From assembly GCF_014843845.1 (NCBI RefSeq), contig NZ_JHQS01000060.1, forward strand, positions 124,001-188,000: a stretch of 64,000 nt of DNA, read 5' to 3'. This document shows positions 19,127 to 21,082 of this stretch, one piece after another. The notes under the pieces were generated by a model that saw only the letters and a list, made by a program, of their open reading frames with translations, searched no databases and was not told where the DNA came from. This stretch comes from Mesorhizobium amorphae. GTDB lineage: Bacteria; Pseudomonadota; Alphaproteobacteria; Rhizobiales; Rhizobiaceae. Made by a program: the position numbers and the translations under genes. Numbering within the stretch: the first letter of the stretch is position 1; each line of letters starts with the position of its first letter.

Positions 19127-19416
19127 CGACGCCGTCCGCGCCCGAGATCGACGGGTGATCCGCTTCGGGACAGTCGGTCTGTGCCGGACCGGGACCGAAA
19201 AGCGCCACGGGCGGGATCATGGTAAGCACTTCGTAAAGGAAGTTGCGGCTCGGGTTTTCTGTTTACCGGCCGTTCACCTTGCCCGACTTCGAAGCCGAGT
19301 GAAAACAATGGCTTGGCAGGAGATGGCGGCTTTTGCCGTCGCGGCAGCGCCATCCGGCCGGATTCCTGCAACTCCCCTCATGCGGTTTCGAGGCCGCGGC
19401 AGGTGGAGGCGGAAAG

Positions 19417-20778
19417 ATGCGGCAGTTCAGGGGTTTTGTTCAGGCGTCCGGCGGCTTTGCCAGGGATCGTGGCGGAAACTTCGCCATCGTCTTCGGCTTT
19501 GCGGCGTCGGTGCTGGCGCTGGGCGTCGGCTTCGCAGTCAACGTCTCCCAACTCTACAACGCCAAATCGAGCCTGCAGGGCGTCGTCGACGCGGCGGTCA
19601 CCTCGACGGCACGCGATCTCACCACCGGCGTCATCAAGGAAGCCGATGCGAACAAGTCCGTGCAGGCCTTTCTCGATGCCAACAGCGCGGCCGGCATCCT
19701 GCAGGCCGACCAGATCGTTCTCGACAAATTGACGGTCGACAAGACGGCCAAGACCGTCCGGGCGGACGTCCATGCCGACGTCACGTTCTATTTCCCGCTG
19801 TTCAGCATGGGCGACATGCAGCGCGTGGGCGTCTCCACCACGGCACTTTATTCGGACAAGACGATCGAGGTGGCAATGATGCTCGATGTGACCGGATCGA
19901 TGGCCGGTCAAAAGATAAAGGACTTGAGGGCCGCCGCCGCAAATGCGGTCGACAGCTTCCTCGACAATCAGAACCAGGCCAACCCCAGGGTGCGGGTGTC
20001 GATCGTGCCCTACGCCAATTCGGTCAATGCCGGTTCGCTTGCGGAAAGCAGCGTCTATGTCGAAACCAAGGCCGGCCAACGCAAACAGGCTCCGGGCAAT
20101 GACGACCCGAAATATGTCGCGGCCTCGTCACGCCCGGACAATTGCGCCACCGAGCGCAAGGGCACCTATCAATATTCGGACGCCGGTCCCGACGTCAGCA
20201 TGGTCAATCGCGACTATTTCCTGTCGGACTTCGCAAAGAGCAGCCGCACGGCAGCTTGCCCGGCCGCTGCCCTGATGCCGCTGACGGCGGATGCCGATGC
20301 GCTGAAGAATGTCATCAAGACCTTTGCCGCCTCGGGCGGCACTGCCGGCCATATCGGCGTGCAATGGGCCTGGTACATGCTTTCCGAGAACTGGGGCAGC
20401 GTGATGATCGCTTCGCAGCGGCCGGCAAAGATGGACCCGAGAAAGGTCGCCAAGATCGCGATCCTGATGACCGACGGCGAGTTCAACCTGTCCTATTTCG
20501 ACGCCAGCAGCGTCGGCGAGGTCTACAACGACGCCGGCAAGGAACCGACCCGCACCGCGGCAAAGACACTGTGCGCCGCCATGCGCGACCAGGGCATCGA
20601 AATCTTCACCATCGGCTTCGACCTCCAGGAGAAGAACGCCAAGGCGACGCTGCGGGATTGCGCGAGCGCCGACACCGGCAGGATCAAGCACTTCTATCAG
20701 GCGGCCAACGGGGCCGAGCTCAACGCAGCATTCCTTGAAATCGCACGCAACATCGAGACGCTGACGATCAAGCGCTGA
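19417..20778 (+). CDS. TadG-like pilus-assembly protein with von Willebrand A domain
   Basis: The 453-residue protein has a short basic N-terminus (RDRGGNFAIVFGFAAS) followed by one membrane helix, the Tad/Flp-type TadE/TadG prepilin-like start. A vWA domain follows with a metal-site motif DVTGSM (Asp about 157) and LMTDGEFN. These proteins are membrane-anchored with the bulk in the periplasm and belong to tight-adherence systems, but no other tad gene is nearby, so it is an orphan copy. The start at 19417 is preceded by GGCGGAAAG. The preceding 290 bases hold no gene that I can support. Confidence 0.8.
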   Translation: MRQFRGFVQASGGFARDRGGNFAIVFGFAASVLALGVGFAVNVSQLYNAKSSLQGVVDAAVTSTARDLTTGVIKEADANKSVQAFLDANSAAGILQADQIVLDKLTVDKTAKTVRADVHADVTFYFPLFSMGDMQRVGVSTTALYSDKTIEVAMMLDVTGSMAGQKIKDLRAAAANAVDSFLDNQNQANPRVRVSIVPYANSVNAGSLAESSVYVETKAGQRKQAPGNDDPKYVAASSRPDNCATERKGTYQYSDAGPDVSMVNRDYFLSDFAKSSRTAACPAAALMPLTADADALKNVIKTFAASGGTAGHIGVQWAWYMLSENWGSVMIASQRPAKMDPRKVAKIAILMTDGEFNLSYFDASSVGEVYNDAGKEPTRTAAKTLCAAMRDQGIEIFTIGFDLQEKNAKATLRDCASADTGRIKHFYQAANGAELNAAFLEIARNIETLTIKR

Positions 20779-20811
20779 TCCGCCGACTTCGGGCAGGTCG
20801 TGGGAACGGAA

Positions 20812-20844
20812 AAGGCCGCCGCTTCTTTCGAAGCCGGCGGCCTT
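20812..20844 (+). terminator. Hairpin terminator after the TadG-like gene
   Basis: The AAGGCCGCCGCTTC arm pairs with GAAGCCGGCGGCCTT (one bulged base) around a TTTC loop. A short TTCCGTGTTTCC follows. It lies 34 bases past the stop and could also act on minus-strand transcripts. Confidence 0.6.
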
Positions 20845-20913
20845 CCGTGTTTCCGTCCATGGCGCGGTCTCTGGCGGTGATGCTGTCGCATCACCTGCCG
20901 CGCTTCTCGCGCC

Positions 20914-20985
20914 TTAACGGGAAGACTGCTTCCCGAAAGTGCAATCCGCTGAGGCCACGTTCTGGAAAACGAAATCACTCGACAT
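20914..20985 (-). CDS. Small ORF of 23 codons with an exceptionally strong ribosome-binding site
   Basis: On the minus strand the sequence GAAAGGAGGTGATCC lies before ATG 20985 with seven bases between GGAGG and the ATG. It is complementary to the whole conserved 16S rRNA 3' tail. The frame encodes MSSDFVFQNVASADC then TFGKQSSR and ends in TAA at 20914. A hairpin-like CACCC/GGGTG pair lies about 25 bases upstream. It is downstream of MOSC on the same strand, after about 100 bases. No family is recognised. It may be a real small protein, a peptide with a regulatory role, or a spurious signal. Confidence 0.45.
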   Translation of the reverse strand: MSSDFVFQNVASADCTFGKQSSR

Positions 20986-21082
20986 CGGATCACCTCCTTT
21001 CGATCTGTTGAACACACCCTCATGATGGGGTGCGTTGCAGCAAAAGACAAGACGCAGGTTTGAAAAAGCCAGAGGCGCCTTG

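What the first reader, a model, noticed from the sequence alone, without database searches (positions are those of the whole stretch)
20914..20985. A 23-codon ORF with a ribosome-binding site complementary to the complete 16S 3' tail
GAAAGGAGGTGATCC, 7 bases from GGAGG to ATG, is the maximal possible pairing with the 16S rRNA end. Such a strong site before a tiny conserved-looking ORF suggests either a highly expressed small protein or a site that titrates or positions ribosomes. No known family fits.
Basis: partly seen in the sequence, partly recalled or inferred. Interest (0 to 1): 0.6.

Follow-up and report, generated by a model that had tools for sequence, protein, structure and literature searches.

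The report
Ribosome-tail-matching structured small RNA gene
The tiny gene belongs to a family of short folded RNAs found in many Alphaproteobacteria, whose ribosome-binding site matches the end of the ribosome's own RNA; evolution is keeping the folded RNA, and its start and stop signals, rather than the tiny peptide it could encode.

Summary
On the minus strand, GAAAGGAGGTGATCC (20987-21001) precedes a 23-codon ORF (20985-20914), the only such site in this genome, kept in 35 of 36 other genomes of the genus. It is not a 16S fragment. The small-protein reading fails: in seven groups of relatives substitutions fall evenly on codon positions (374/418/357), and a hairpin at the ORF end is kept in two reading frames. 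What is conserved is a unit of about 210 nt: leader, extended SD, ORF, covarying helices, terminator. A covariance model finds it in 150 of 198 Rhizobiaceae genomes, nearly always once. Related units in other families join rreB/rreR (recalled) to Rfam sRNA CC2171. New here: the SD can pair with an imitation of the 16S tail inside the ORF; the base between SD and start covaries with its partner (15 of 17 families, 7.8 expected). Most likely a ribosome-gated RNA: 30S competes with the internal mimic, and ribosome occupancy decides the RNA's fold or fate. What it regulates is unknown. New variant of a known kind.

The parts
20987..21001 (-). extended Shine-Dalgarno GAAAGGAGGTGATCC, 15 nt complementary to the 16S 3' tail
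   Evidence: 16S tail of Phyllobacterium; relatives
20914..20985 (-). 23-codon ORF (ATG...TAA); start and stop kept, no sign of coding constraint on the peptide
21022..21051 (-). putative promoter: CTTGTC (21046-21051) and CCCCATCAT (21022-21030); inferred from conservation only, a sigma-70 consensus scan found none
   Evidence: conserved blocks; scan negative
21007..21015 (-). conserved leader GTGTTCAAC
20986..20993 (-). helix S1, SD side GTGATCCG (includes the one-base spacer)
   Evidence: pairs with 20941-20948; spacer base covaries across families
20941..20948 (-). helix S1, 16S-tail mimic CGGATTGC inside the ORF (codons 13-15)
   Evidence: not in the minimum-energy fold
20970..20978 (-). 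helix P1 5' strand GTGATTTCG (codons 3-6)
20847..20856 (-). helix P1 3' strand ACGGAAACAC, just before the terminator
20918..20935 (-). hairpin P3 CGGGAAG-CAGT-CTTCCCG at the end of the ORF, covarying, loop mostly CAGC/CAGT/CAAC
20898..20903 (-). helix P4 5' strand
20862..20867 (-). helix P4 3' strand
20810..20842 (-). intrinsic terminator: stem 20814-20842, then UUUU
   Evidence: the stricter T-run rule of the scan tool was not met
20810..21020 (-). inferred transcript, about 210 nt (both ends inferred)

Best explanation
A separately transcribed (inferred), structured RNA of about 210 nt, the Rhizobiaceae form of an alphaproteobacterial family that includes rreB/rreR (recalled) and Rfam CC2171. 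The selected product is the RNA, not the peptide. SHOWN by sequence: long complementarity to the 16S tail with a start codon at fixed spacing, an open frame mostly of 14-27 codons, covarying helices, complementarity (S1) of the SD with a 16S-tail mimic inside the ORF, a terminator, and lack of coding constraint. INFERRED: with no ribosome the SD is held in S1; a 30S subunit enters at the unpaired AAAGGAG part, its 16S tail replaces the mimic (similar sequence, strand exchange), and the extended duplex next to the start codon holds the 30S and slows escape. When a ribosome does elongate it runs over the mimic and P3, stops at the hairpin, and keeps S1 open. Ribosome occupancy therefore sets the fold, and with it the stability or the regulatory activity of the RNA. 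The final target is unknown.
For: RNA-level selection: changes by codon position flat in 7 groups, 153 sequences, 374/418/357; adjacent coding stretch as control. Hairpin motif kept in two frames. Structure: 47 sequences, 28 pairs, 94.1% of cells paired, 13 pairs with changes on both sides, 0 of 500 shuffles reach any of the five measures, slid versions 38-53% paired; window transcript folds at -98.7 kcal/mol, z -5.85, 0 of 200 shuffles as good. S1: spacer base and partner base Watson-Crick in 15 of 17 families, 7.8 expected, p 3.5e-5 by 200,000 shuffles, all four pair types; in the wider set 132 of 197 against 74.7, neighbouring bases as controls 44 against 45.1 and 35 against 29.0. Frame of 14-27 codons in 270 of 289 distinct sites, against 47 and 40 in the other frames. 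Hairpin plus T-rich stretch downstream in 150 of 152 against 36 of 86 control stretches. 150 of 198 Rhizobiaceae genomes, nearly all with one match.
Against: No expression, probing or ribosome data exist here; the switch is inference. The minimum-energy fold of the window transcript contains P1 but not S1; S1 and P1 cross, so they form a pseudoknot or exclude each other, which the folding tools cannot decide. The S1 test is post hoc: the pairing was noticed in these same sequences before it was counted. The GGRTY motif was missing in 75 of 272 sites and in several families of the class sample; sphingomonad and rhodobacter forms seem to use other pairings. The SD:body duplex is only moderately better than shuffles (mean z -1.36, SE 0.23, 2 of 17 families positive). 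The 16S match is not invariant: 20 family members found by the model without the exact motif have an extra base or a changed base, and 48 of 198 family genomes gave no match. Apart and the model search, loci were collected by an exact SD pattern, so SD conservation among them is partly built in. Terminator-like stretches are common in controls too (36 of 86), and the test stretch was slightly longer than the control (about 228 against 200 nt). Covariation counts sequences, not independent events.
Confidence: 0.55

Rival explanations
1. A conserved, highly expressed small protein of 23 aa with an optimal ribosome-binding site.
For: Start codon, spacing and an open frame of similar length are kept; Mesorhizobium peptides are nearly identical.
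Against: No third-position excess in any group; within the genus the unit including leader and terminator is conserved, not just the codons; peptides unrelated between families beyond the first residues; the conserved hairpin is read in different frames.
Confidence: 0.07
2. A ribosome decoy: the site titrates or parks 30S subunits, or protects the 16S tail, with no further regulatory output.
For: Long 16S-tail match with start codon at fixed spacing, one unit; 30S co-sedimentation and weak translation reported for rreB (recalled, not read).
Against: One gene copy in nearly all genomes against thousands of ribosomes (general knowledge; transcript number unknown); the SD can pair with an internal mimic, which would hide a decoy; the elaborate 3' structure is not needed for a decoy.
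Confidence: 0.15
3. A dual-function or trans-acting small RNA that base-pairs with mRNAs; the SD and ORF control its availability.
For: Unit with its own conserved upstream block and terminator; Rfam files the related CC2171 as an sRNA; conserved hairpin loop and leader.
Against: No target tested; the conserved loop is short; no expression data. Not exclusive of the best explanation.
Confidence: 0.18
4. A leader peptide or attenuator controlling a neighbouring gene.
For: Short ORF with hairpins and a terminator is the usual form; in 14 Rhodobacteraceae-type loci a gene on the same strand follows.
Against: In the window the next gene downstream is convergent (19333-20778, +) and the unit ends in a terminator; neighbours differ even within the genus and between families.
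Confidence: 0.04
5. Artefact: a fragment or antisense of a 16S rRNA gene, or a chance match.
For: The 15-mer is the reverse complement of a 16S end.
Against: Match stops after 15 nt on both sides; no SSU rRNA in the window; found in context in 35 of 36 other genomes of the genus and with zero control matches order-wide.
Confidence: 0.01

Closest known systems
rreB (Bradyrhizobiaceae) and rreR (Rhodobacter/Roseobacter lineage), Hahn et al. 2017, RNA Biol 14:1353 (citation seen; content recalled, paper not held)
   Same: Extended SD against the 16S tail, fixed start, very short ORF on a small transcript; the loci found here in named Bradyrhizobium (14 aa, GTG) and Rhodobacteraceae (18 aa, GTG) have the recalled lengths and, for rreB, the recalled start codon.
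   Different: Mesorhizobium form has a 15-nt match instead of 17, ATG instead of GTG, 23 aa; no peptide similarity.
Rfam RF01867, Caulobacter sRNA CC2171
   Same: Full-length alignment 1-159 over SD, start, P1 and terminator: 33.2 bits, E 1.2e-5. Loci that pass the threshold (Bosea, Caulobacterales, Brevundimonas, L240) carry the same SD plus ORF.
   Different: Below the gathering score of 75; interior of the structure differs (P3 and the long P4 arm in Rhizobiaceae).
Extended, start-codon-proximal SD motifs of Staphylococcus aureus (PMC13009471, abstract read)
   Same: SD pairing reaching close to the start codon used as an initiation signal.
   Different: A general feature of many initiation sites there; here a single structured short RNA.

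Membership tests
rreB/rreR extended-SD small mRNAs (criteria recalled) | SD with at least 16 nt complementarity to the 16S 3' end (recalled search criterion) | tested here: not met
   15 contiguous nt in the window; families with ATCCAGTG reach 17
rreB/rreR extended-SD small mRNAs (criteria recalled) | very short ORF directly after the SD, on its own small transcript | tested here: inconclusive
   ORF part met: 23 codons, 1-nt gap; the transcript is inferred from a terminator and a conserved upstream block, with a negative promoter scan, and was not measured
rreB/rreR extended-SD small mRNAs (criteria recalled) | association with 30S, weak translation, start-codon-dependent stability | not testable with these tools
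   needs gradients, reporters and Northern blots
Rfam RF01867 CC2171 | score at or above gathering threshold of 75 bits | tested here: not met
   33.2 bits for the window; 4 of 18 other loci pass
Rfam RF01867 CC2171 | overall architecture: SD and start at the 5' end, P1 closing just before a terminator | tested here: met
conserved small protein gene | excess of third-codon-position changes (purifying selection on the peptide) | tested here: not met
   control
leader peptide / attenuator | regulated gene downstream on the same strand | tested here: not met
   convergent neighbour and terminator in the window; neighbours not conserved
16S rRNA fragment | match to the SSU rRNA model or flanking identity | tested here: not met
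   the held genomes returned no SSU rRNA at all (0 of 5), so the own 16S could not be read

The most novel reading that the evidence does not exclude
A widespread, pseudoknotted 'ribosome riboswitch': an RNA whose ligand is the free 3' tail of 16S rRNA. The internal mimic of that tail and the real tail compete for the same SD, so the RNA's fold reports free 30S availability; translation of a throw-away ORF is the reset. One gene of this kind per genome, in many Alphaproteobacteria, would be a dedicated sensor of ribosome supply.
Probability: 0.25. Interest if true: 0.85.

Novelty: new variant of a known kind. Interest (0 to 1): 0.6.

Why it matters
It turns a supposed micro-protein gene into a conserved structured RNA, joins two things that I did not find connected in the papers listed by my searches (the rre small mRNAs and the Rfam sRNA CC2171), and supplies exact base pairs to test. 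If the switch is right, bacteria have a one-copy RNA that reads the state of the ribosome's own rRNA tail. It also cautions against counting every short ORF with a superb SD as a protein: here the SD, start and stop are kept while the peptide drifts.

Tried and rejected
Rejected: 16S fragment; functional peptide; leader of a neighbour. Among the 25 neighbour clusters printed, synteny gave no partner gene shared by all families. A generic promoter and terminator scan of the region found neither. The own 16S gene could not be read: the SSU rRNA model matched 0 of 5 held genomes, so a plasmid-borne 16S of Phyllobacterium was used. RNAalifold on tool alignment A1 gave -18.9 kcal/mol (covariation term -1.9), with S1 and P3 but hardly any P1; I take the misaligned variable arm as the reason. 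The 75-sequence alignment made in Python gave -136 kcal/mol with P1 and without S1. A planned positive control on the MOSC gene turned out to fall, in 25 of 28 loci as I read the printed rows, on other upstream sequence, mostly one gene apparently on the opposite strand (clusters); the phase bias of that stretch (250/90/108) still shows that the method detects coding, but its position labels are not those of MOSC. Other sub-threshold Rfam matches over the unit had E 0.55 or worse. Literature: searches for rreB, rreR, extended Shine-Dalgarno and CC2171 listed no paper on this element; the lists are capped (in one search only 20 of 727 were shown), so this is no proof of absence. Hahn 2017 and Landt 2008 are not held (a guessed DOI). 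The S. meliloti small-proteome paper (PMC10117765, passages) and two Caulobacter sRNA papers (PMC12559287 and PMC11005374, passages) do not use these names. Schrader 2014 (PMC4117421, passages) says that two earlier predicted ncRNAs of Caulobacter are translated, not naming them in the text seen, and that most ncRNA regions are not translated.

Rows dropped: codon test used only distinct ORFs of equal length per group (153 sequences; groups are by peptide type and length, trees from the same short sequences); pair counts used 47 of 58 representative loci; model R1 used 40 of 53; of 45 class-level hits 30 were fetched as loci, and of their 22 families 17 had a one-base spacer and the motif and entered the S1 test. 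Of 99 family-level loci, 93 passed the start-codon test; at least one of these (L186) looks like a chance hit. L316 was a filler region.

Full report
WHAT IS THERE. On the minus strand of the window, GAAAGGAGGTGATCC occupies 20987-21001, one G follows, and ATG starts a 23-codon ORF, MSSDFVFQNVASADCTFGKQSSR, ending with TAA at 20914. The antisense 16S end on a Phyllobacterium replicon reads AGAAAGGAGGTGATCCAGCC, so 15 contiguous bases can pair with the 16S tail; both neighbours mismatch. The window holds no SSU rRNA match. In the 7.36-Mb genome AGGAGGTGATCC occurs three times (backwards control: once) and only here before a start codon.

CONSERVATION. A DNA search with the 181-bp region matched 43 of 61 genomes: its own, 35 of 36 others of the genus, and 7 of 24 of other families in the order. 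Identical peptides in named Mesorhizobium records (L070, L140) place the window in or next to that genus. The pattern SD plus start codon matched 104 of 249 genomes of the order, 106 of 199 of the family and 45 of 289 drawn from the class, with no match of the backwards control in the rows of these three calls. Of 99 family-level loci analysed, 93 passed the start-codon test. A covariance model of the first 113 nt found 150 of 198 Rhizobiaceae genomes, all but two of them (G357, G369) with a single match, including lineages whose SD differs: of 20 such loci inspected, 13 have an extra base (ten of them exactly AAAGGAAGGTGATCC) and 7 a changed base in GATCC. The perfect 16S match is therefore common but not obligatory.

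NOT A PROTEIN. Parsimony changes by codon position, codon 2 to the last, were 74/77/65, 50/57/41, 63/75/73, 37/38/36, 45/49/45, 35/47/30 and 70/75/67 in seven groups of equal-length ORFs (40, 23, 19, 12, 19, 23 and 17 sequences), in sum 374/418/357. No group shows the third-position excess expected of a selected peptide. The same counting on an adjacent coding stretch of the Mesorhizobium loci gave 250/90/108 by phase against 6/6/8 in the ORF; in 25 of 28 loci that stretch is not the window's MOSC gene but other upstream sequence, mostly one gene apparently on the opposite strand, so the phase labels do not carry over, but the bias shows that the method sees coding. Between families the peptides are unrelated beyond the first residues. 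In several lineages the hairpin GGAGCAGCCTCT at the ORF end is read GAG CAG CCT CT. (EQPL) and in others CGG AGC AGC CTC TGA (RSSL stop): the RNA motif is kept while the frame has moved. Yet an open frame is kept: 270 of 289 distinct sites stop after 14-27 codons in frame, against 47 and 40 in the two other frames (related sequences and a few chance hits included, so no probability is given). Translation to a nearby stop seems to matter, its product not.

THE RNA. In 28 loci of the genus the conserved block runs from a promoter-like CTTGTC...CCCCATCAT through GTGTTCAAC, SD, ORF and downstream helices to a terminator, while the flanks diverge. The upstream gene is not even the same in most of them, so the upstream block belongs to this unit; an alignment of 129 family leaders keeps CTTGCC...CCCCA...GTGTTCAAC. 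The generic scan saw neither promoter nor terminator, but a hairpin followed by a T-rich stretch lies within about 228 nt downstream of the start in 150 of 152 loci, against 36 of 86 control stretches of 200 nt. The window transcript 20810-21024 folds at -98.7 kcal/mol, z -5.85, 0 of 200 shuffles as good; part of this is the terminator. In 75 aligned sequences RNAalifold gives -136 kcal/mol with P1, P3 and the terminator. On 47 sequences, 28 named pairs in five helices are formed in 94.1% of cells, 13 pairs show changes on both sides, none of 500 shuffles reaches any of the five measures, and slid partners form 38-53%. P3, the hairpin at the ORF end, carries much of the covariation (6 of 7 pairs with changes on both sides); P1 joins codons 3-6 to the 3' end just before the terminator and is nearly invariant in GTG/CAC, so it has little covariation of its own. 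One P1 pair (columns 49-248) fails in 22 of 47 sequences, in my reading in part because the alignment is shifted there.

AN INTERNAL IMITATION OF THE 16S TAIL. RNAalifold on A1 paired the 3' half of the SD plus the spacer base, GUGAUCCR, with YGGAUYGC in codons 13-15 of the ORF: helix S1, 96.5% of cells paired. The SD varies little, but the spacer base varies. I noticed the pairing in these sequences first and then counted it. Across the collected sites, the base before the first GG(A/G)T(C/T) motif in the ORF is Watson-Crick to the spacer base in 132 of 197 (74.7 expected), while the neighbouring bases used as controls stay near expectation (44 against 45.1; 35 against 29.0); 75 of 272 sites lacked the motif. 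With one locus per family it is 15 of 17 (7.8 expected, p 3.5e-5), with A-U, G-C, U-A and C-G all present. The whole SD pairs with the following 80 nt somewhat better than with shuffled versions (mean z -1.36, SE 0.23; 2 of 17 positive). In forms without this motif RNAalifold suggested other pairings of the SD or start codon: UCACCUC inside the Bradyrhizobium ORF, and a start-codon hairpin plus CACCUCC/CAUCUCC near the 3' end in Rhodobacteraceae; these were not tested statistically. In the window the minimum-energy fold has P1, not S1. S1 and P1 cross, so they exclude each other or form a pseudoknot.

HOW IT LIKELY WORKS. Shown: the 16S-tail match, fixed start, kept frame, covarying helices, S1 complementarity, terminator, no coding constraint. 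Inferred: the free RNA holds its SD in S1; a 30S subunit binds the unpaired AAAGGAG end, and its tail displaces the mimic by strand exchange; the long duplex beside the start codon delays initiation; an elongating ribosome opens S1 and P3 and stops at the hairpin. Ribosome supply thereby sets the fold of the RNA. Recalled reports on rreB (30S co-sedimentation, weak translation held back by the long SD, longer life when the start codon is removed) fit this, but I could not read the paper. What the RNA acts on is not known; decay of the RNA itself, sponging of 30S, or pairing with mRNAs are all open.

KNOWN RELATIVES. Rfam's CC2171 sRNA of Caulobacter matches the window unit over its full length at 33.2 bits (E 1.2e-5), below its gathering score of 75. 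Of 18 other loci with this SD, four pass the gathering score: Bosea, an uncultured Caulobacterales, Brevundimonas and L240; 14 do not. Loci in named Bradyrhizobium encode 14 aa from GTG and in named Rhodobacteraceae 18 aa from GTG, as recalled for rreB and rreR. I take the three as one kind of element. Strict membership fails twice (15 instead of 16 nt, a recalled criterion; Rfam score), hence 'new variant of a known kind'. My searches of the held library listed no paper that links them, but the lists are capped and the two key papers are not held, so this is no claim of first report.

VERDICT. A real, widespread, nearly always single-copy structured RNA with a ribosome docking site and a self-made copy of the 16S tail; not a micro-protein gene. 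Family and RNA-level selection: about 0.9. Ribosome-gated switch: about 0.5. Function in the cell: open.

Noticed in passing
L072, L079, L082, L138, L175 and others, motif 230-1185 bp downstream of the SD; L075, L123, L223 upstream: Of the 319 loci scanned, in 14 of Rhodobacteraceae type a gene on the same strand with a GPGGQNVNK-like motif (resembling the ribosome-rescue hydrolase ArfB, name recalled) follows the element, and in 3 loci of the MSSEK form it lies upstream on the other strand. Among the 25 neighbour clusters printed it was the one that joined these two peptide classes by several loci.
   Followed up: partly
L110, L231, L153: In three loci the same extended SD and spacing precede a longer, signal-peptide-like ORF (VRISAFVLAAAMLVAAAGAAFAEGG..., MSHGASPVVAALFGLAALLTAGIANAE...) instead of a 14-27 codon ORF.
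   Followed up: no
L354-L363, L365-L367: A group of Rhizobiaceae genomes has an extra base in the SD (AAAGGAAGGTGATCC in ten of these thirteen, close variants in three), bulging the 16S duplex but keeping the start-proximal GGTGRTCC.
   Followed up: partly
L001-L029, upstream of the unit: Within the genus the upstream gene differs: MOSC in the window's locus and 2 others of the 28 printed, other sequence in 25, while the element is nearly unchanged.
   Followed up: partly
L130, L145, L169: Metagenome bins labelled gamma- or betaproteobacterial carry the SD pattern with a short ORF, most like the family in L130 (MSSEIVKVSREPDGLIRMMEEPSDIR); binning error, chance or wider spread, not resolved.
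   Followed up: no
G357 and G369: Two of the 150 Rhizobiaceae genomes with a match have two matches to the model R1.
   Followed up: no
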